Shown here piece after piece: positions 1,811 to 17,683 of a stretch of DNA of 24,432 nucleotides. Positions within the stretch are counted from its first letter, which is position 1. Every line of letters begins with the position of its first letter. The stretch covers positions 1 through 24,432 of the IMG/VR virus record IMGVR_UViG_3300047548_001602; one strand, given 5' to 3'. A model generated the notes under the pieces. That model saw only the letters and a list, made by a program, of their open reading frames with translations. It was not told the DNA's origin and did no database searches. Position numbers and translations under genes: made by a program. This stretch comes from a virus.

Positions 1811-4240
1811 TTATTTGTTTAAGTTAAACATTTCTAATTCTTCTGGTTCTTCAAAATTTTTCGGGTCTTCGTCGCGTTGCCTTTGCGTGATGAGCTGACT
1901 TTGCTGGCTTGCTTGCATCTGAGTACGCTTGTCTTTTCTTTCTTCGGTTTCCTCAAGTTTCTGCAACTGAACTCCGCCTTGAATTTGAGCGACTTGAATA
2001 TCACCTTGAATTTTCATTTCTAAGGTAATTCGGTCCTGTTCTCCTCTTACTTGCTCCTTGGCAATTTCACCTTGGGAAATCATTTGCTGAACTTGCATTT
2101 TTGTTTGAGCATCTATTTGAGCAGTTTGTTGTTTTGCTTGTTCGGCAGCTTGACTTGCTCTAATGTTAGCCTCAGATTGATAGTCGTATTCGCGTTTCTT
2201 TTGTTCCTCTTGTTGCTTGGCGAATTTTTTGCGCAAAATACCGAGATATTGAGTAGCAAGAGTAAGGTTTTTGATATTTAATATTCGGTATTTCATCTCC
2301 GTAGTTATGAACCCTTTATCAATTTCCTTAGTCAAATCAATTTCTAATTTAGCGCGCTCCTCATCATCTAAGGCAAGCTCGAAGAAAATAGCGAAATCGT
2401 ACAAATGCAAATCTTTAACAGACTCTAAATCAAGTACGGCAGTTTTGCCAATTTTACGTGCTAAGTCTTCTTTTAAATTTGAGAATTTCAATACGTCGGC
2501 AATTCGGTAACTTATCGCCTGAGCAGTATTTTTGGTCAAGTAATTCGCTGCGTCCAAAATATGACGAGTCGCGGTGTTCGAATTAAGTGCTGCCATTTTC
2601 TGCAATCCTACCAACGAATCTTTATCCGGAGTAGAAGCGTCTGACATACGGTTTAATCCGATTACGTCACGCATTTTATCTGTGTTGATTGCGATAGTAT
2701 TCTCTATTGCTTGGAGTTTGTTTAACGAATCTCCCGTACGTAACTCTTTTACAATATCTTTGGCGTAATTGAAATCTCCGCCGGCAGTTGAACTTCTTGT
2801 CAAAATATCCCCGCCTTGAACAAACATATTCAAGTTGTCTTGGATAGTGGTTGTTTTACCATCGCCCAAGTCTAATTCTACTAATCCGTCTACGTCAATT
2901 TGGAAACCGTCAGGACGTACTTTTTGCAAGATTTGAAGTCCTTTTAATACCGATACTTGAATAATGTCATCAATAGGAATCATTCTTGCCACAAGCGAAT
3001 CAATATAGCCTTTTTCTTTGTTTGGCGCAACTATTCGGTACGGTCTGATTACTTTTTGCGAATTTGACTTAGGTCGAGACATATTTTCGGCAACTTGCCA
3101 TTTCAGTAAAATGTCGGTTCCTAAAACGTAAACTCCTTCCATCAAAACTTCTTCAACTTTTTCAAGTCTTTTGAAATCTAAATTTTCCACGGCGGTTTCG
3201 TCAAATACCTCGTTTGCTTTTGAAACAACTTTCATTCCGGTAGACTTCTCTTTTATCTTCTGAGCAACTTTGCGGGTTGTCACACAAGTAAAATACAAAA
3301 TCTGCGTGGTGCCTTTCATTCTTTCATTGATATTGAAATTGTGATAAGTCCACCATTGCTGACCCGACGACTCCATTAACTCTTGAGTTTCTTTATCATC
3401 GTATAGCCACGGGTATTGCGTAATCAAATCGCTGATAAGCACTTCTTTTACTTCTCCGTCATAGTAGTTAGTCTTGTAAAACGGGTCGTCGGTGTATGGG
3501 TGAATTTTATTTTCTACATCAACGTATCTTACTTTTATGCCTTGTCCGGGAATAAACTCGTCTTTCTCGCAACCAATTCCGCAAACTACCAAGTCGGTAA
3601 TAACACGTTTTCTAACAGTATCATTGTACTCGTTTTCTTCAAATACAGTTTGGATAGCTAATTCTTCGGAAAGCTCAATTGACGGCTTGTATTCCATTTC
3701 CATATGAAGTTGTAATTCTTCATCGGTTTCCGGAACTTGGTCAATTGGTAAAAATGAAACATCTACTCCTAGAGTTTCTTTTGCTTTGATAGAAATATCT
3801 TTGGTAATTCGGTCTTTCTCGACTTCTTTTCGGTAAGTTTCCCTTTGGTCTTGAGAGATAGGGTCAATGGAATATGCTCTTACAGAATAATCTCGACTCA
3901 TCATTCCGTTTACCACCACATCGACTAATTTAGGCATAATGGTAATAGGTCGGATTCCTGTCAAATTCACATAGCTTAAATCTCCGTTTACCGCCAATGT
4001 ATCAATATACTTTTTGGTCGATTGAAGTCCTTTAGCATACGCTCTACGTTCTCTAAATTGTTCTCTTTGAGTGTAAAACGCACAAGGCGCACCACCAAAC
4101 CTGTAAAACCACTCGCTTTCAATTGCCCTTGCAAAAGCCAAGCCCCAAGCATTTGTTTTTTTTACTTCAAATGAATCTGATGGATTTGGGTAGGCAGGCG
4201 TTCCTTTGATTTCTAGCTTCTGAGAATTGTTGCTTTCCAT
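1811..4240 (-). CDS. Phage portal protein
   Basis: An 809-residue protein placed directly after the terminase gene, the usual site of the portal. The portal forms the dodecameric ring at the capsid vertex through which DNA is pumped. Seen in the sequence: a long alpha/beta body (residues 1 to about 680) with segments such as RKRVITDLVVCGIG and RMIPIDDIIQVSVLKGLQIL, and SDASTPDKDSLVGLQKMAALN, typical of large portals of Bacteroidota phages as I remember them. It ends in a roughly 110-residue Gln/Glu/Lys-rich coiled coil (about 680-790) and an acidic tail. This long Q-rich helix resembles the C-terminal barrel or crown extensions known in several portals, including those of crAss-like phages. 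The start ATG 4240 has a promoter-like -7 element 24 bases upstream. A terminator follows the stop. No frameshift is visible. Confidence 0.8.
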   Translation of the reverse strand: MESNNSQKLEIKGTPAYPNPSDSFEVKKTNAWGLAFARAIESEWFYRFGGAPCAFYTQREQFRERRAYAKGLQSTKKYIDTLAVNGDLSYVNLTGIRPITIMPKLVDVVVNGMMSRDYSVRAYSIDPISQDQRETYRKEVEKDRITKDISIKAKETLGVDVSFLPIDQVPETDEELQLHMEMEYKPSIELSEELAIQTVFEENEYNDTVRKRVITDLVVCGIGCEKDEFIPGQGIKVRYVDVENKIHPYTDDPFYKTNYYDGEVKEVLISDLITQYPWLYDDKETQELMESSGQQWWTYHNFNINERMKGTTQILYFTCVTTRKVAQKIKEKSTGMKVVSKANEVFDETAVENLDFKRLEKVEEVLMEGVYVLGTDILLKWQVAENMSRPKSNSQKVIRPYRIVAPNKEKGYIDSLVARMIPIDDIIQVSVLKGLQILQKVRPDGFQIDVDGLVELDLGDGKTTTIQDNLNMFVQGGDILTRSSTAGGDFNYAKDIVKELRTGDSLNKLQAIENTIAINTDKMRDVIGLNRMSDASTPDKDSLVGLQKMAALNSNTATRHILDAANYLTKNTAQAISYRIADVLKFSNLKEDLARKIGKTAVLDLESVKDLHLYDFAIFFELALDDEERAKLEIDLTKEIDKGFITTEMKYRILNIKNLTLATQYLGILRKKFAKQQEEQKKREYDYQSEANIRASQAAEQAKQQTAQIDAQTKMQVQQMISQGEIAKEQVRGEQDRITLEMKIQGDIQVAQIQGGVQLQKLEETEERKDKRTQMQASQQSQLITQRQRDEDPKNFEEPEELEMFNLNK

Positions 4241-4286: not shown

Positions 4287-6962
4287 TTAATGACGTCCCG
4301 AGTAATTATCGTATTTTTTTATCGATAATGAGAATGGTTTTTTCTCCTCAACCTTTTTGTAATTGTTTCGATTTACCGCCATAATTGCCAAACCTGATGA
4401 AATTGACGCGTCAAATTTTGTTCTGTCTTTAACGTTGAATTTTAACCAATCCGACAAGGTTCTGATAAATGGCATATCGCCAATTTCACCGTCTTCTCTT
4501 AATCTTTGTCCCGTTCCCTCGTGTACGTATTCTCCAACGTAATTATTCACGTATGTTTCTATGCCGGTCCAATGTCTATTGATAATGTCAGGGGAGTTAT
4601 TTGGAATTCCGCCCAAAAGCTTCTCATCAGGTGATAATTTGTCCATTTGCTTGTCCATACGGTTAATAGAATAACCACGGTAACCCCTGTTTTTAAAATG
4701 GTACAACAACATTTTTTTATTGTTCTCCACAAGTATCGGCATTGAATAAAATACACACGCCATTAATACGTCTTCAAAAAACATTTCTGAATCTTTTGGT
4801 CGGGCAATGTACTCTAAGAAAAATGTATTGCTTGGCGCATCGCCTAAATTGAATCCCGTTAATCCGTGCAATGCTCCTTTTGAACCTAAATTGTATTCGG
4901 TGCCGTTTTCAGTAGCCACTAATTTAGAATCTACTACCGCTACTTGGTCATAAGGGTCACAGCCAAATGCTCCGACTTCTTCAAATAGAGGAAATCTTGT
5001 TGATCCGCCAAGTCCAAAAGGCGTCGGCTTCCAAGTAAACTTATTCCTCATCTCTTCCGGCGGAATCCAATACACTAAAAACCTACCTCTTTCTTCCGGT
5101 CGCCAAATAACCTCTGTGTCCGGCTCATTGTTTTTCCAATAGAAATTACCGCGAACTAATTTTTCATCAATTCGAACGTTTTTATTGTGAATGATTTGCT
5201 GAGTGATTTTCTCTACGTCAAATAATTGCTCTTGGATTTCATCTCTAAATGCGTCGTCTAAAGTTACAGGGTCGAGCCTTCTAGTATTATTCAGGTACTT
5301 ACCGCCCATCTTTCTTGCTGAAGCAAATTCGTTTTCTAAATATTGAAGCGCGCCAATAGTTTTCTTTTCTCCTTTGAAGTTTATAAATGAATCTCCTTCT
5401 AAAACAACATCGTGACAAACTCCGTAGATGTCTGTAAAAGTTTCGTAGTTTTTATGAGCCGGCAAGAAGTAAGAGTATAAACCGGTAGTTGTTCTTCCGT
5501 TGGGGTTTCTTTGAGTCACATCAGAGCCGTAAAACAAGTTTTGAAATTCTTTTCCACCTCTCTCAAGCGCGTTGACCGTCGACCCAATTAATGCTTTACC
5601 AACTACGTTTCCACCCTGCACCATCGTGGGTTTGATATTATTCCAATGGTCTTCGTAATTGTTCGGTCTTTCCCATTTAGAAGCCTCGTCACCTAGATAT
5701 AAATACAAGGCAGTGGAGTCATAAGCAAGCGTGGCTGTCGCTCTAAAATCGACTATAACGTTTAGATAATCGTTTGTGCTTGTATCTCTTTTTTGCTTTG
5801 CGGTTTTTGAGTTGTCTGACGGCTTTCCAAATTCCATTTTTTTAACATCGTCAATCTTACCTTTTACAACCGGCTGAAAGAAAAATGGTAAGTTTCTAAT
5901 TGCATAAGAGTATTTTGTAAATGCTTTCACGGCATCTGCCTCTGTTTTTGAAGTAATACCAAACGCTTTATTTTTTACACTTGTAGAATAATGAACGAAG
6001 TGGTCTAACGCCATTTCTGTAAATCCACTACGACGTCCCTTACAAAAAATCATACCTACACTTCTCGGGTCAATCATACAAGCTAAAGCGTGATAATACA
6101 TCGATGCTTGCGCATATCTGAAATCTTTAAACCCACCTGTCTCAAGCATCTCATTCCATTGCAAACCCATATAATGCGCCGGAGTAACCCAAGTTGGTTT
6201 TCCGTTATTAAAGAACCAAAATCCCTCTTTTCTTCTTCTGTATTCTTCTAAAATATAGTCTGAATATTCTTCTTCGTTATCAGGCGTTAGTCCTTTTGGA
6301 ATTTCTTGCCTACGCCAATACTGCTGTTCTTTTGGGAGTCTGTGAAATGCTATGTTTTTTTTATTTGCCGGAGGTTTTGGTAGCGCAACTCTTAACCCGT
6401 CAAGAACAAGTATTTCTCCTACCGTTCCTTTTGGGTCCAAAATGATACAGTCGTTTTCTTCATCGTACCATTTTTTGTAGTAATCTTTATCCGGAAAAAA
6501 CTCTTGGTTTGCGAAGCGTTCAGGAAATGAAGGCTTAAACTCTCTTGTTTTGAAATCTATTGTAGAAGTTTCTATTTGCTTCTCCAATATCTTTATTCCT
6601 GAGTTTATTTCATTCAAAGCACGGTAAATTACCGGCTTACTTCTTATCGCTTGTCCAAATTTTTCAACGTCAAGTTCATCAAAATCAATTTCCTTCCTTA
6701 GCGCCTCCCTAAGCACCGTAGAAGTTGTTTCTCCTGCTTTTATTAGTTTTTTAGTGTAGTCTATTAGTTTTGCGCTACTTGGCGCGTTTGGCGAATTTTG
6801 CCATATTCCAAGCATTTCTTTTATTGATACAAACGATTCTTGTCTTGACTTTACAAGCCTTTCCAATTTATCGTCATCAACATCGACAATCTCAATTCTC
6901 TTGGTCATTCCATCAATAGAATTGTTGATTGCTATTTCAATATCAGAACTTAAATTTTTCAT
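4287..6962 (-). CDS. Terminase large subunit (packaging ATPase-nuclease)
   Basis: An 891-residue protein from ATG 6962. It powers DNA translocation into the prohead and cuts the genome. Visible motifs: a Walker A-like segment CKGRRSGFTE (307-316), a Walker B segment LYLYLGDEASKW with D425-E426, and a coupling-like motif ALIGSTVNALERGG (457-470). The C-terminal third (about 690-800) fits an RNase H-like nuclease, with GCDPYDQVAVVDS and PILVENNK supplying acidic residues. The 270-residue N-terminal region before the ATPase is unusually long and unassigned. An in-frame GTG at 7028 would add 22 residues, but it lies upstream of the promoter-like element, so ATG 6962 is preferred. The portal gene follows after 46 bases. 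No intein splice motifs were noticed despite the length. Confidence 0.85.
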   Translation of the reverse strand: MKNLSSDIEIAINNSIDGMTKRIEIVDVDDDKLERLVKSRQESFVSIKEMLGIWQNSPNAPSSAKLIDYTKKLIKAGETTSTVLREALRKEIDFDELDVEKFGQAIRSKPVIYRALNEINSGIKILEKQIETSTIDFKTREFKPSFPERFANQEFFPDKDYYKKWYDEENDCIILDPKGTVGEILVLDGLRVALPKPPANKKNIAFHRLPKEQQYWRRQEIPKGLTPDNEEEYSDYILEEYRRRKEGFWFFNNGKPTWVTPAHYMGLQWNEMLETGGFKDFRYAQASMYYHALACMIDPRSVGMIFCKGRRSGFTEMALDHFVHYSTSVKNKAFGITSKTEADAVKAFTKYSYAIRNLPFFFQPVVKGKIDDVKKMEFGKPSDNSKTAKQKRDTSTNDYLNVIVDFRATATLAYDSTALYLYLGDEASKWERPNNYEDHWNNIKPTMVQGGNVVGKALIGSTVNALERGGKEFQNLFYGSDVTQRNPNGRTTTGLYSYFLPAHKNYETFTDIYGVCHDVVLEGDSFINFKGEKKTIGALQYLENEFASARKMGGKYLNNTRRLDPVTLDDAFRDEIQEQLFDVEKITQQIIHNKNVRIDEKLVRGNFYWKNNEPDTEVIWRPEERGRFLVYWIPPEEMRNKFTWKPTPFGLGGSTRFPLFEEVGAFGCDPYDQVAVVDSKLVATENGTEYNLGSKGALHGLTGFNLGDAPSNTFFLEYIARPKDSEMFFEDVLMACVFYSMPILVENNKKMLLYHFKNRGYRGYSINRMDKQMDKLSPDEKLLGGIPNNSPDIINRHWTGIETYVNNYVGEYVHEGTGQRLREDGEIGDMPFIRTLSDWLKFNVKDRTKFDASISSGLAIMAVNRNNYKKVEEKKPFSLSIKKYDNYSGRH

Positions 6963-6980
6963 TTTGTTTAAATATAATGT

Positions 6981-6988
6981 CAAAGATA
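6981..6988 (-). promoter_or_regulatory. Promoter -7 element for terL
   Basis: TATCTTTG on the minus strand (6988 to 6981) matches TANNTTTG and stands 18 bases before ATG 6962. The -33 position is poor. It is divergent from the rightward -7 element at 7001-7008, only 12 bases away. Confidence 0.45.
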
Positions 6989-7000
6989 ATAATTTTTTAC

Positions 7001-7008
7001 TATATTTG
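7001..7008 (+). promoter_or_regulatory. Promoter -7 element for the HNH gene unit
   Basis: TATATTTG followed by C matches TANNTTTG; the -33 site is not recognisable. Transcription would begin near 7013-7016, making a leader of about 110 bases that contains the interlocking stems described separately. Confidence 0.45.
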
Positions 7009-7015
7009 CACTGTT

Positions 7016-7101
7016 GTTGGCTTCTCACATTATACCAACTAAAGGAATTACACAGTCCCGAATATGAAGCCGAAGTGAGAAGCGGTGGATTATTCGGGAT
7101 T
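7016..7101 (+). ncRNA. Structured, pseudoknot-capable RNA leader before the HNH gene
   Basis: Two long complementary pairs interlock. Stem A: GCTTCTCAC (7020-7028) pairs perfectly with GTGAGAAGC (7075-7083), 9 bp. Stem B: AGTCCCGAATA (7054-7064) pairs with TATTCGGGATT (7091-7101), 11 bp with one G-U. The order A-B-A'-B' defines an H-type pseudoknot with connecting loops of 25, 10 and 7 bases. A short hairpin GTTGG/CCAAC (7016-7020/7035-7039) and an alternative pairing GGCTTC/GAAGCC (7019-7024/7066-7071) compete with stem A, so a switch is possible. Stem B ends 23 bases before ATG 7125 and is followed by an A-rich stretch. It fits no riboswitch or ribozyme class I can recognise. It may control the endonuclease gene or be a remnant of a mobile RNA element; both are inferences. 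Confidence 0.5.
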
Positions 7102-7124
7102 TGCGTTTTAAAAAAAAGATAAAA

Positions 7125-7655
7125 ATGGAAGAACTATTTTACATCCCAGAATTTGAGCCTTTTTACAAAATATCTAAAAAAGGCGATGTGTACACCTATA
7201 AAAAGAATCGCCACGGTCTTCTTGATACTCCAAGAAAACTAAAAGCAGTCAAGATAAAAAAGACCGGATATTTAAAAGTCACACTTCATAAAGACGGAAA
7301 AACATTCCAGCATACTGTTCATGGGTTAATGGGAATTACATTCTTAGGTAATATTCTTGATGGAACAAACAAGATTACTGTAGACCACAAAAACGATATA
7401 AGAGACGATAATAGACTTGAAAATCTTCAACTCTTAACGAATAGGAGGAATTCTATAAAAACCAAAAAGGAGGGAACATCAAAATATATTGGAGTTTCTT
7501 GGAATAAAGCAAAGAAAAAATGGGAGGTTAAAATAAGATTTAAAGGAGATAATTTATTCGTTGGTCTTTTTTCAGACGAATATGAAGCGCATTTAGCATA
7601 TCAAAAAGCACTAAAAAGAATAGAAGATGGTCTTCATCCAAAGGAAAATAAATAA
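7125..7655 (+). CDS. HNH homing endonuclease (NUMOD4-HNH-AP2)
   Basis: A 176-residue protein with the domain order of free-standing phage homing endonucleases. Residues 1-50 match NUMOD4 (EELFYIPEFEPFYKISKKGDVYTYK). Residues 60-110 form the HNH core, with H66 and VDHKNDIRDDNRLENLQLLTN supplying D87-H88 and the conserved Asn-Leu-Glu-Asn region. Residues 119-165 form an AP2-type DNA-binding domain (SKYIGVSWNKAKKKWEVKI). It would make a site-specific cut and promote copying of its own gene. The start is ATG 7125; a TTG at 7101 in frame lies inside the structured leader and is not favoured. The gene points opposite to terL and looks like an insertion between terL and the late genes. The next gene follows after 27 bases. 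Confidence 0.9.
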   Translation: MEELFYIPEFEPFYKISKKGDVYTYKKNRHGLLDTPRKLKAVKIKKTGYLKVTLHKDGKTFQHTVHGLMGITFLGNILDGTNKITVDHKNDIRDDNRLENLQLLTNRRNSIKTKKEGTSKYIGVSWNKAKKKWEVKIRFKGDNLFVGLFSDEYEAHLAYQKALKRIEDGLHPKENK

Positions 7656-7682: not shown

Positions 7683-7997
7683 ATGAAAAAACCAGAAAGA
7701 ATTAAAAAAGCTGTTGAGTTAATGCTAAAAAATGAAGACAAATACTGCTCTTTAGTTTGGTATGCTAGAGCTAATCCAGACAAACACTCCGGAAGCATAA
7801 AAGAAGCCGTGCTAAAAGGCATTAAAGATGTTGAAAATAAATTCCCAAAAGAAACAGCATCTTTTAACGAAGAAGGAGCCAACGATTGGGAACACGGATT
7901 TAATTCCGGAATGTTAGCAGCATCGAGACTATATCTTTCAATGATTGAATATAATGTCGAGCAAGCATTAGAAGATTTTCCTTTTCTTGATTCGTAA
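7683..7997 (+). CDS. Conserved-looking protein of unknown function, 104 aa
   Basis: I do not recognise this protein. It is hydrophilic and predicted mainly helical, with a Lys-rich N-terminus (MKKPERIKKAVELMLKNEDKY) and a C-terminal half rich in Ala, Glu and Phe (NDWEHGFNSGMLAASRLYLSMIEY). There is no signal peptide or membrane segment and no clear catalytic motif. It follows the HNH gene by 27 bases on the same strand and ends 5 bases before a bidirectional terminator, so the two genes probably share a transcript. Genes of this kind are typical phage accessory genes. An antisense open frame covering the same bases has no codon-level support. Confidence 0.7.
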   Translation: MKKPERIKKAVELMLKNEDKYCSLVWYARANPDKHSGSIKEAVLKGIKDVENKFPKETASFNEEGANDWEHGFNSGMLAASRLYLSMIEYNVEQALEDFPFLDS

Positions 7998-8697: not shown

Positions 8698-8731
8698 CAA
8701 ATCTACGAAATTTTTTAATTCAATTCGCAAA
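8698..8731 (-). promoter_or_regulatory. Promoter for the 8054-8668 structural gene
   Basis: Minus-strand TTTG (8731 to 8728), 22 bases, then TAGATTTG (8705 to 8698). The -33 element lies inside the last codons of the upstream tandem-GroES gene. It would give a leader of about 25 bases before ATG 8668. Confidence 0.55.
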
Positions 8732-9257
8732 GAATTCTCTTTTTGTGCATACAGTATAATTTTTCGCCATCAATATTGAATTCGAATTCGCAATTACGTC
8801 GAAACGCGATTTTTTTCCCGATTTGGGAACTTTCGGACGAATACTTTACAATTCCCGAATGTTCTTTTTCTACAACGCCTAAAAAATAATCTTCTTCATT
8901 GAAAGGCTGAACAAATACGTTATCATCTACCGCGATTTTTTCTCCTTGTCGGATTATCATATAAACAAGCTCTTTTGAGACCCAGTATAAATCGTCTTTG
9001 ATGTGGTGGTTAGATTGAATAACTACTCCTTTGTGGTCGTACTGTGGTCGGAATATGTTGTGGTGAATTATTACTTCGTCGCCTACTTTTACATTTCCAT
9101 CGTAGTCAATTGGCAAACTCACCACTTTTGCGTTTCGGTTTACATTCTTTGCTTCTTCTATTGAAGTGCTTGTTATAAATGTAACCCCGCCGATTTCCTC
9201 AGTATTTTTGAACTGATTACCAATTGGCGAAACTATGAAATTTCGTAGCCCTTGCAT
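8715..9257 (-). CDS. Tandem GroES-like (Cpn10) co-chaperonin candidate
   Basis: A 180-residue protein that reads as two Cpn10-like domains in a row. Domain 1 (about 1-107) starts LRNFIVSPI, has a mobile-loop-like segment IGGVTFITS (22-30; compare AGGIVLTGS of GroES), the hallmark VKVGDEVIIHH (57-66), and ends YWVSKELVYMIIRQGE, the GroES strand that carries the ring contact. It has an insertion at about 70-88. Domain 2 (about 108-180) repeats the pattern: VDDNVFVQPF, a shortened loop, IGKKIAFRRNCEFEFNIDGEKLYCM, and HKKRILCEL at the end. GroES caps the GroEL ring; a double-domain form is known in chloroplast Cpn20. It lies in the late operon, 1 base after the 87-aa gene, not next to groEL. Function as a lid for the phage or host GroEL is inferred from motifs only. 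Confidence 0.65.
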   Translation of the reverse strand: MQGLRNFIVSPIGNQFKNTEEIGGVTFITSTSIEEAKNVNRNAKVVSLPIDYDGNVKVGDEVIIHHNIFRPQYDHKGVVIQSNHHIKDDLYWVSKELVYMIIRQGEKIAVDDNVFVQPFNEEDYFLGVVEKEHSGIVKYSSESSQIGKKIAFRRNCEFEFNIDGEKLYCMHKKRILCELN

Positions 9258-9258
9258 A

Positions 9259-9522
9259 TTAATCGTTTTCGTATTCTAATGTACAGAACTTATTGTAAGC
9301 AATATTTTTCCAAATTTGCGCGTCTTGACCGTCAGACAAATAAACAAGCACTCTTTCGTCCTCTAAGACAATGTCGCTCACGTACTTTCTTATTGGCATT
9401 TGCTTTTTTTCGTCTTCAAATCCGACGTTGTGTTTTGATCCAAGTTGAAATACCATATCTCGTGGATTTCCGTCGTTATCAAATATTTTGTAGCTTACTG
9501 AGCGAATTTTTCCTAATTCCAT
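9259..9522 (-). CDS. Small protein of unknown function, 87 aa
   Basis: I do not recognise this protein. It is acidic to neutral and predicted to be mostly beta strand with alternating hydrophobic residues (IRSVSYKIFDNDGN, ERVLVYLSDGQDAQIW). No signal peptide, membrane segment or catalytic motif is seen. It sits in the late operon between a 111-aa gene and the tandem GroES-like gene, only 1 base from the latter, suggesting translational coupling. The start ATG 9522 is 12 bases past the upstream stop codon. A small structural or assembly role would fit the location, but there is no direct support. Confidence 0.65.
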   Translation of the reverse strand: MELGKIRSVSYKIFDNDGNPRDMVFQLGSKHNVGFEDEKKQMPIRKYVSDIVLEDERVLVYLSDGQDAQIWKNIAYNKFCTLEYEND

Positions 9523-15815: not shown

Positions 15816-17375
15816 ATGATTCCAAAAGACGTTTCGCTCGATAAATCGGGCAAAGAAAAACTACTCAATGGCATTAATATCTTTGCCAATGCAATCAACA
15901 CTACATTAGGTGCCGAGGGGCGAACAGTTTTAATCGAAGACAATTACGGTCGACCATTAGCCACGGGAGACGGGTATGATGTCGGGCAATCGATTTTCCT
16001 TGAAGACCCTACCGAAAGCCTAGGTTGTGAAATGATGAAAGAAGGTACGGATAAGGTTGTAAATGACGCGGGAGATAACACTTCTACTTTTACTGCACTT
16101 GCCCAAGCGTTAGTGAATAATTCGCATATCGAATTGGATAAAAGTGGTCAATCCGCCAATTCAATTCGTGACGGTCTTTTAAAATCAAAAGAATTAGTAC
16201 TTGCGCATTTGAAAAAAATCGCCAAACCGCTTACCCCCGAATTATTACGTGACGTAGCCACAACTTCTTGCCGAGGAGATAAAGAATTGGCAAATTACGT
16301 TGTAGATGCCTTTGAAAAAGCGGGAGATTACGGTACCGTATCGCACACTCGCTCAGAAACAGAAGAAACATATGTTGACTTTATCGATGGTACGCTAATC
16401 GAATCAGGATTCAGTCACTTCGAAGTCTTCATCAATGATTTCCCTAATCAAAAAGCCGAGTGGGAAAACGCAAATGTGTTGCTTTCTGAAATGACCTTTA
16501 CAACTTGGGAAGGAATTAAACCTTTCGTTGTTCATTGTCAGCAAACGGGTAAAAATCCGCTTGTGATTATCTCCGAAGTCAGCAACGAATTACGCCAATT
16601 ACTTGCTCAAAACTTCATTGCATTTTTGCAAAATAAAGGCGGTTACCCAATTTTGGTAATTGACCCGCCAAGTTCAGGAAGTCGTCGTAAAGATTATTTG
16701 AAAGATTTGGGATTAATTGTTGGTGCCGAAGTGATTACTACTACATCGGGAGTTGACTTTTCAGCAGTTGCAGGTAATTACCTTGGCAAATGTGCGAAAT
16801 TCACTTCTACTCGTAACGATAGTATTTTAGTTTCCGACAAATCAGTTGACAAAAATCCGTCAATCGGCAAATTGGAAGAATTATCAGCTATTGTAAAATC
16901 TTCAAACAACCACGAAGAAAAGAAATACCTTGAAGACCGAATTGCCAAGTTAAATGGTAAGATTTCAATCATTAAAGTCGGCGCCGGAATAGAAAGTGAG
17001 TTAAAAGAAAAAATCTCTCGTGTAGAGGACGCTGTTAAAGCTGTAAAATCAGCAAAAGTTGATGGTGTAGTTGCCGGTGGTGGAATTGCTTTGCTTGATG
17101 CTGTTCAAAAATGTGAACTGGATTCTGTTACTGAAATTTCACTTGACGCACCGCTTAAAAAGATTTTGGAAAACGCTGGATTTGATATTTCAGTTTACAA
17201 TGAAATTGAAGGTTATCCAAAAGGATTTGACGTAGTTGCCAAGAAAGAAGTTGATATGTTTGAAGCGGGAATTATAGATACCGTAAAAGGACTTTCTTCT
17301 GCTTATTCTCACGCGGTTTCTGTTGCAGTTACCGTTCTTATGACAAATACTTTCATAACTAGAAAAAGACAATAA
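15816..17375 (+). CDS. groEL: Phage-encoded GroEL-type chaperonin
   Basis: A 519-residue group I chaperonin, which folds proteins in a closed ATP-driven chamber. Collinear with GroEL: KDVSLDKSGKEKLLNGINIF, TLGAEGRTVLIED (30-42), TGDGYDVGQSIFLED (50-64, D52), NDAGDNTSTFTALAQAL (83-99, catalytic-type D87), the apical domain from about 188 to 370, KLNGKISIIKVGAG (378-391), SRVEDAVKAVKSAK (401-414, D405 equals GroEL D398) and GVVAGGGIALLDAV (417-430). It is about 30 residues shorter than E. coli GroEL and ends FITRKRQ without the flexible GGM tail. One residue is missing before the GDxT loop compared with typical DAAGDGTTTAT. It has its own promoter and is followed after 2 bases by groES, the reverse of the usual bacterial order. 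Phage GroEL homologues are known in Pseudomonas phages EL and OBP. It probably serves folding of virion proteins. Confidence 0.93.
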   Translation: MIPKDVSLDKSGKEKLLNGINIFANAINTTLGAEGRTVLIEDNYGRPLATGDGYDVGQSIFLEDPTESLGCEMMKEGTDKVVNDAGDNTSTFTALAQALVNNSHIELDKSGQSANSIRDGLLKSKELVLAHLKKIAKPLTPELLRDVATTSCRGDKELANYVVDAFEKAGDYGTVSHTRSETEETYVDFIDGTLIESGFSHFEVFINDFPNQKAEWENANVLLSEMTFTTWEGIKPFVVHCQQTGKNPLVIISEVSNELRQLLAQNFIAFLQNKGGYPILVIDPPSSGSRRKDYLKDLGLIVGAEVITTTSGVDFSAVAGNYLGKCAKFTSTRNDSILVSDKSVDKNPSIGKLEELSAIVKSSNNHEEKKYLEDRIAKLNGKISIIKVGAGIESELKEKISRVEDAVKAVKSAKVDGVVAGGGIALLDAVQKCELDSVTEISLDAPLKKILENAGFDISVYNEIEGYPKGFDVVAKKEVDMFEAGIIDTVKGLSSAYSHAVSVAVTVLMTNTFITRKRQ

Positions 17376-17377
17376 CA

Positions 17378-17683
17378 ATGAGCGAATCAGTGAAATTTAA
17401 CGGAACCGCGTTTAACAAAGTTGTAATCTTGAAGGAAATTATCGAGGCTACTGTTGATGCTCAAACTGGATTAGACGTAAGCAACGACGCGGACAAGAAT
17501 GATAAGACAAGAAAAGGTCTAGTTATGCAAGTAGGTCACGATGTGCCAAAAGACAAGGAAGGAAATCCCTACGTTCGCCAAGGAGACTTTGTTCTCTACA
17601 ACCGACACGCTGCTTCAAACTTAACCCACGAAGGAGTCAAGTACAAACTCATCTACTACGATGATTTGATTTTGAAGCTGTAA
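17378..17683 (+). CDS. groES: Phage GroES-type co-chaperonin
   Basis: A 101-residue Cpn10-like lid protein. It shows FNKVVILKEIIEA (12-24), the first strand; a mobile-loop-like segment AQTGLDVSNDADKND (28-42); KGLVMQVGHD (46-55), equivalent to GEVVAVG; YVRQGDFVLYNRHAASN (65-81), equivalent to VKVGDxVLF; and VKYKLIYYDDLILKL (87-101), equivalent to the final xYLIMxExDILAxI strand. The length is standard for GroES (about 95-100). The start ATG 17378 is 2 bases after the groEL stop, so the genes are cotranscribed. A strong bidirectional terminator begins 4 bases after the stop. The loop carries TGLDV rather than the usual GGIVL, which may tune it to the phage GroEL. Confidence 0.85.
   Translation: MSESVKFNGTAFNKVVILKEIIEATVDAQTGLDVSNDADKNDKTRKGLVMQVGHDVPKDKEGNPYVRQGDFVLYNRHAASNLTHEGVKYKLIYYDDLILKL

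What the first reader, a model, noticed from the sequence alone, without database searches (positions are those of the whole stretch)
8715..9257. Second co-chaperonin: two GroES-like domains fused, inside the late operon
Residues 1-107 and 108-180 each follow the Cpn10 strand order, and domain 1 keeps a GGVTF mobile-loop motif and the VKVGDEVII signature. A tandem lid in addition to a normal groES 8 kb away implies two lids in one phage, with separate expression. Double Cpn10 proteins are established for chloroplasts (Cpn20), not, to my knowledge, for such phages.
Basis: partly seen in the sequence, partly recalled or inferred. Interest (0 to 1): 0.8.

Follow-up and report, generated by a model that had tools for sequence, protein, structure and literature searches.

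The report
Phage chaperonin lid with two domains
This phage gene encodes a protein made of two fused GroES-like lid domains, carried in addition to an ordinary GroES and GroEL; it belongs to a widespread, already annotated family in phages of Bacteroidota, but its tandem build, and the loss of one of its two GroEL-gripping loops in most members, appear undescribed.

Summary
The 180-aa ORF at 8715-9257 (minus strand) is two fused GroES-fold domains (about 1-104 and 105-180). AlphaFold2 gives pLDDT 90.6. The best PDB match over the whole chain is the double co-chaperonin Cpn20 of Chlamydomonas (7ekq_R, Z 10.1), and each half also matches single GroES. Domain 2 is Cpn10 by profile too (hhalign 95-97%); domain 1 is Cpn10 mainly by fold and only weakly by sequence.

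The protein is not unique. The family is PHROG 13932, already named 'co-chaperonin GroES'. It sits upstream of terL in 84 of 84 testable loci. Sequenced relatives also encode a single GroES and usually GroEL; Pachyviridae phi46:3 has both lids but no GroEL.

New here: domain 1 keeps a long mobile loop with a conserved hydrophobic motif, while domain 2's loop is cut to about 16-19 residues in the window's group (25-26 in phi38:1 and phi46:3). Most likely function: a second, late, gp31-like lid for folding virion or packaging proteins, possibly co-assembling with the single GroES. Lid function is inferred, not shown.

The parts
8715..9257 (-). Tandem-Cpn10 co-chaperonin gene, 180 aa (PHROG 13932)
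8946..9257 (-). Domain 1 (residues 1-104), GroES fold; no roof hairpin in the predicted strand order
   Evidence: GroES 5opx_U Z 8.2; gp31 1g31 Z 7.5; weak by sequence
9129..9224 (-). Domain 1 mobile-loop region (residues 12-43), long, with conserved hydrophobic motif at residues 27-29 (FIT here)
   Evidence: lowest pLDDT block of the model (72)
8718..8945 (-). Domain 2 (residues 105-180), Cpn10 by profile and fold
8856..8903 (-). Domain 2 shortened loop (residues 119-134; 16 residues, GroES 23), modelled as an ordered beta-hairpin
9259..9522 (-). Small conserved upstream ORF (87 aa), stop 1 nt before the ATG of the double lid; all-beta, function unknown
   Evidence: (present in 82 of 83 loci)
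4287..7028 (-). terL (large terminase), downstream of the double lid in all testable relatives
1811..4240 (-). portal protein
   Evidence: phrog_6547 E 4.9e-103
15816..17375 (+). phage groEL (likely start ATG 15816; ORF opens at TTG 15759)
17378..17683 (+). ordinary single-domain groES

Best explanation
The gene encodes a tandem-domain co-chaperonin (two GroES-fold domains head to tail) that serves as a second, late, phage-specific lid for a GroEL-type chaperonin: the phage's own GroEL where one is present, the host's in Pachyviridae. Domain 1 grips the chaperonin through its long mobile loop with a conserved hydrophobic motif. Domain 2 packs beside domain 1 as a neighbouring lid position but in most members has given up its own gripping loop. 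Both domains lack the roof hairpin, as T4 gp31 does, which would leave a roomier, open-topped cage suited to large phage proteins such as capsid, portal or terminase. Shown: two Cpn10-fold domains, loop asymmetry, co-occurrence with a single GroES and usually with GroEL, and synteny with terL. Inferred: lid function, client proteins, ring stoichiometry, late expression.
For: Fold of the whole chain matches Cpn20 7ekq_R (Foldseek E 5.1e-6, probability 1.00; VIA Z 10.1) and each half matches GroES. Domain 2 profile probability 95-97% to bacterial Cpn10, with Pfam Cpn10 above cut-off in relatives phi46:3 (33.3 bits) and phi38:1 (24.1 bits). All nine records of 36 kb or more that were tested in the window-like and phi38:1 groups carry groEL + single groES + double lid. 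The position upstream of terL is conserved in 84/84 loci. Domain 1 loop is 28-33 residues in 46/46 members, with a hydrophobic residue at position 27 in 46/46. Phage GroELs keep ATPase residues T30, D52, D87, S151, D398, G415, D495. gp31 precedent: no roof loops, longer mobile loops, folds gp23 (PMC6318259).
Against: No binding or folding data. Domain 1 is only weakly Cpn10 by sequence. Even-numbered domains raise the known symmetry problem with a sevenfold chaperonin. Several residues that bind GroES in E. coli GroEL (L234, L237, V263, V264) are changed in the window's GroEL, so lid binding there cannot be read directly from the E. coli model. phi46:3 has no GroEL, so the phage GroEL is not an obligatory partner.
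Confidence: 0.66

Rival explanations
1. Hetero-oligomeric lid (a sub-model of the best explanation): the double protein does not act alone but completes a seven-domain ring with the single GroES (for example 3 double + 1 single), as chloroplast Cpn20/Cpn10 do. Domain 2 then acts as a spacer position without its own grip.
For: Single and double lids co-occur in all five phage genomes checked, phi46:3 without groEL included, and in all nine IMG/VR records that have groEL. Chloroplast Cpn10 and Cpn20 form functional hetero-oligomers of seven GroES-like domains (PMC5780408). The model aligns over both domains to Cpn20 of the 7ekq complex, which also holds Cpn11 and Cpn23.
Against: No complex modelled or measured. 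The single gene sits on the opposite strand or in another gene block, so co-expression is unproven.
Confidence: 0.35
2. Homoheptameric two-tier lid (the other sub-model): seven chains, seven domain-1 mobile loops matched to seven GroEL subunits, and seven loop-less domain-2 copies forming an outer collar or dome.
For: One intact mobile loop per chain in the window's group fits a sevenfold chaperonin without a mismatch.
Against: phi46:3 and phi38:1 keep a 25-26 residue loop in domain 2. The whole-chain match to Cpn20 suggests side-by-side rather than stacked domains.
Confidence: 0.2
3. Structural or packaging protein: a GroES-fold module used in the virion or with the terminase, not a lid.
For: Invariable position next to terL and portal. 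GroES-like folds occur in non-chaperonin proteins, for example the MDR dehydrogenases seen at Z 3-6.
Against: In phi38:1 and phi46:3, neighbours are annotated as structural proteins but the double lid is not. A mobile-loop-like motif is conserved. Canonical Cpn10 profile in domain 2.
Confidence: 0.12
4. Inhibitory cap of another ring, such as host ClpP, as the Chlamydomonas Cpn11/20/23 cap does.
For: The closest solved structure is the cap of a ClpP complex (7ekq); CPN20 is reported to cap and repress chloroplast ClpP in vitro (PMC12282863).
Against: Phage GroEL accompanies it in all tested large records outside Pachyviridae. No direct evidence for a ClpP target.
Confidence: 0.06

Closest known systems
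Cpn20 (chloroplast/apicoplast double co-chaperonin)
   Same: Two head-to-tail GroES-fold domains in one chain; best PDB match over the full length (7ekq_R, Z 10.1); coexists with a single-domain Cpn10.
   Different: About 17% identity and no significant Cpn20 sequence hit. In the window's group domain 2 lacks a normal mobile loop, whereas Cpn20 is generally held to have two (own knowledge). Phage late gene, no transit peptide; independent origin likely but not tested.
T4 gp31
   Same: Phage-encoded lid, no roof hairpin, long mobile loop; domain 1 aligns to gp31 (1g31, Z 7.5).
   Different: gp31 is single-domain and T4 brings no GroEL; here there are two domains, mostly with a phage GroEL.
PHROG 13932 'co-chaperonin GroES' / 'chaperonin cpn10' of Pervagoviridae, Pachyviridae, Elemovirus
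   Same: This is the same family: 44/44 aligned relatives match it.
   Different: Existing annotation names a plain Cpn10; the tandem build and loop asymmetry are not mentioned in the records or papers read.
Phage single-domain GroES (PHROG 3188)
   Same: Same fold; 20/44 family members also match it, weakly; in the window protein through domain 2.
   Different: One domain, encoded beside or near groEL rather than terL.

Membership tests
Cpn10/GroES (PF00166) | GroES-type beta-barrel fold, each half | tested here: met
   domain 1 to 5opx_U Z 8.2, domain 2 to 8wuc_a Z 8.8; the non-Cpn10 rows are at Z 5.9 or below
Cpn10/GroES (PF00166) | Sequence profile match, domain 2 | tested here: met
   hhalign 95-97%; the window protein itself is under the Pfam cut-off (13.1 vs 21.1 bits) but relatives exceed it
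Cpn10/GroES (PF00166) | Sequence profile match, domain 1 | tested here: inconclusive
   hhalign 8-48%, score 21-28 against null maxima of 17-21
Cpn10/GroES (PF00166) | Mobile loop with hydrophobic motif | tested here: met
   domain 1 only:
Cpn10/GroES (PF00166) | Ring assembly and nucleotide-dependent binding to a Cpn60 | not testable with these tools
   needs purified proteins or complex modelling
Cpn20 double co-chaperonin | Two tandem GroES-fold domains | tested here: met
Cpn20 double co-chaperonin | Mobile loop in both domains | tested here: not met
   domain 2 loop 16 residues in the window protein; 25-26 in phi46:3 and phi38:1
Cpn20 double co-chaperonin | Common descent of the tandem with plastid Cpn20 | not tested
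   no Cpn20 sequence set built; profile search against PDB gave no significant Cpn20 hit
PHROG 13932 | Full-length profile match | tested here: met
   E 8.5e-19 over residues 1-176
T4 gp31 | Absence of roof hairpin | tested here: met
   no strand between E42-47 and E61-64, nor between E127-140 and E149-152, in the model; gp31 lacks roof loops (PMC6318259)
T4 gp31 | Single Cpn10 domain | tested here: not met
   two domains

The most novel reading that the evidence does not exclude
A phage lineage evolved, independently of plastids, a two-gene lid kit: a single GroES plus a fused double lid whose second domain has lost its gripping loop. The two co-assemble into an asymmetric seven-domain cap (for example 3 double + 1 single) that opens the chaperonin cage for oversized phage clients late in infection.
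Probability: 0.28. Interest if true: 0.75.

Novelty: new variant of a known kind. Interest (0 to 1): 0.55.

Why it matters
Tandem co-chaperonins are described for plastids and apicoplasts, where the fit of even-numbered lids to sevenfold chaperonins is debated. Here a large phage group, with cultivated members (phi38:1, phi46:3, Calle, elemo phages), carries a single and a double lid side by side, with and without a phage GroEL, and with one or two long mobile loops. That natural series would make the lid-symmetry question, and the question of why a phage needs two lids, testable in laboratory phage-host pairs.

Tried and rejected
Plain Pfam and phmmer-to-PDB searches with the single protein gave no Cpn10 hit above threshold; profiles and fold were needed. 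A PDB profile hit of domain 1 to an LpxA-type acyltransferase (E 0.004) was judged chance, because the AlphaFold model shows a GroES barrel. Recent internal duplication: the two halves show no direct profile similarity (hhalign 0.9%), so the fusion is old or of two different Cpn10 lineages. Small terminase (position just upstream of terL): rejected because the model is all-beta, while small terminases are helical (own knowledge). Relatives in bacterial and archaeal MAGs were taken for phage contigs binned with them; the titles name metagenome bins. The second copy in L001 was judged a probable assembly chimera. A correlation 'domain-2 loop lost when the phage has GroEL' was considered and dropped: phi38:1 has GroEL and keeps a 26-residue loop. 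The fold of the small upstream ORF gave no convincing match (best Z 4.9). The 2013 Cellulophaga phage paper was not held, so virion mass-spectrometry evidence could be read only through record annotations.

Full report
OBSERVATION. The ORF at 8715-9257 on the minus strand encodes 180 aa. Its ATG follows the stop of an 87-aa ORF (9259-9522) by one base, which suggests translational coupling. It lies in the minus-strand gene array that holds terL and portal (phrog_6681 and phrog_6547). An ordinary groES (17378-17683) follows groEL (likely 15816-17375) on the plus strand, about 8 kb away. The window is a 24.4-kb virus record.

IS IT TWO Cpn10 DOMAINS? By plain sequence the protein is under Pfam's Cpn10 cut-off (13.1 vs 21.1 bits, residues 145-177), but it matches PHROG 13932 'co-chaperonin GroES' over residues 1-176 (E 8.5e-19). 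I collected relatives and aligned 44 non-redundant ones (A2). Residues 105-180 as a profile match bacterial Cpn10 (bacterial set, plus E. coli GroES) at hhalign probability 95%, score 47.7; 40 column-permuted controls reached at most about 17. Residues 1-106 reach only 8-16%, score 21-23, aligned on the G-x-V-V ... VKVGDxVI core. Adding phi46:3 and phi38:1 gives 97% for domain 2 and 12-22% for domain 1; their single domain-1 sequences reach 45-48% against the mixed bacterial and phage Cpn10 set. AlphaFold2 on A2 gives pLDDT 90.6, pTM 0.82. Foldseek's top PDB hit is 7ekq_R, the Chlamydomonas Cpn20 double co-chaperonin, over both domains (E 5.1e-6); VIA-align gives Z 10.1, 154 residues, rmsd 3.9. 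Residues 1-104 align to GroES (5opx_U Z 8.2; 2c7c_O Z 7.8, rmsd 1.9) and to T4 gp31 (1g31 Z 7.5), residues 106-180 to Cpn10 (8wuc_a Z 8.8); the first non-Cpn10 rows are at Z 5.9. The tandem is therefore real: domain 2 by sequence and fold, domain 1 mainly by fold.

HOW COMMON IS IT? 77 phage records hold full-length relatives (68 Flavobacterium elemo phages, 7 Cellulophaga, 1 Maribacter, 1 unclassified). 30 bacterial or archaeal contigs, nearly all MAG-derived, also carry one, most likely binned phage. Pachyviridae phages phi46:3, phi13:2, phi18:3 and phi19:3 carry a distant version (family profile E 9.4e-13 for phi46:3; hhalign 97.6%). The genes are annotated 'chaperonin cpn10' or 'co-chaperonin GroES' in many records, and a 'chaperonin cpn10' is among the eight core genes of Pervagoviridae (PMC8776804; which of the two Cpn10 genes is meant is not said in the passages read). 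The gene family is thus known; I found no paper on its tandem build among the open-licence papers.

NEIGHBOURHOOD. In 84 of 84 loci with enough sequence the double lid is followed on the same strand by terL within about 1.8 kb, and in 82 of 83 the small ORF precedes it (loci are related, so these are not independent events; the one apparent exception in the raw count, L003, is a short excerpt of the window itself). The small ORF is confidently all-beta (pLDDT 93) without a convincing PDB match (best Z 4.9). In phi38:1 and Calle_1 groEL and the single groES sit in the replication gene block; in elemoF they lie on the strand opposite to the late genes. Two lids in different transcription units is therefore a reasonable inference; expression was not measured here.

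PARTNERS. phi38:1, elemoF, MW202828 and Calle_1 each have one groEL, one single groES and one double lid (Calle_1 double lid). Of 15 IMG/VR records with the double lid, 9 have groEL, and the same 9 have a single groES over Pfam's cut-off; all five records of 36 kb or more are among them, and those without are shorter fragments. phi46:3 (complete, 73 kb) has single and double Cpn10 but no GroEL by annotation or by profile search, so there the lids, if lids, must work with host GroEL, as gp31 does. GroEL of phi38:1 is seen as protein during infection (PMC13288928). The phage GroELs keep the ATPase residues but differ from E. coli in the lid-binding groove; the window's has K, V, A, Q at L234, L237, V263, V264 (E. 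coli sequence and functional positions from own knowledge).

THE TWO DOMAINS DIFFER. The domain-1 loop region is 28-33 residues in all 46 sequences, with a hydrophobic residue at position 27 in 46/46 and I/V/L at 28 in 42/46, followed mostly by N/S-T/S; it is the least certain stretch of the model. The domain-2 loop is 11-19 residues (mostly 16) in the 44 members of the window's group, has no conserved hydrophobic tripeptide and is modelled as an ordered hairpin. phi46:3 and phi38:1 have 25-26 residues there, and phi46:3 reads PSLIYIPEDNKEK, like bacterial Cpn10 (IIIPDxAKEK). GroES has 23 by a comparable measure. Neither domain has a roof hairpin in the model, like gp31 (PMC6318259).

MECHANISM. 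Best reading: a second, gp31-like lid made of two fused positions, with one grip per chain in most members, used late for large virion or packaging proteins. Two stoichiometries are open: a mixed seven-domain ring with the single GroES, for which chloroplast Cpn10/Cpn20 is the precedent (PMC5780408), or a homoheptamer with seven domain-1 grips. No step beyond fold, loops and gene context has been shown. A structural role is less likely: neighbouring genes carry 'structural protein' annotation in phi38:1 and phi46:3, the double lid does not. A ClpP-capping role is possible by analogy to 7ekq (PMC12282863) but has no direct support.

VERDICT. The gene family is known and annotated; the tandem organisation, the regular company of a single groES, the Pachyviridae case without GroEL, and the loop asymmetry are the new parts. 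New variant of a known kind; interest 0.55.

Noticed in passing
L001:56-2751 (minus strand) against L001:2782-5526 (plus): IMG/VR contig 3300020045_019176 ends in an inverted, diverged (48% identical) second set of double lid, small ORF and tail genes facing the first set; probably two related phages joined head to head in assembly.
   Followed up: partly
window 9259-9522 (minus): A small all-beta protein with invariant W-K and near-invariant E-Y motifs precedes the double lid in 82 of 83 loci; AlphaFold pLDDT 93 but no convincing structural match, so it may be an undescribed partner.
   Followed up: partly
window 7101-7655 and 7683-7997 (plus): An endonuclease-like ORF (resembling HNH/AP2-type homing enzymes by eye, not tested) and a second ORF (a relative also in L001 6248-6565) sit on the opposite strand between the double lid and terL, separating genes that are adjacent in most relatives.
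   Followed up: no
window 15816-17375 (plus): Phage GroEL lacks the Gly-Met-rich tail, and its lid-binding groove differs from E. coli, including a 5-residue insertion after helix H; all 13 phage GroELs compared lack that tail.
   Followed up: partly
BFVD S0A2F3, Cellulophaga phage phi14:2: An uncharacterised 129-aa protein shows a weak structural match to one Cpn10 domain (E 9.4e-3); possible unrecognised lid in another Cellulophaga phage.
   Followed up: no
G007 loci L150, L152, L155, L157 and G003 L158: Several MAG-borne, phage-like Cpn10 ORFs carry about 40-60 extra residues before the Cpn10 domain (open frames 142-216 aa); not examined.
   Followed up: no
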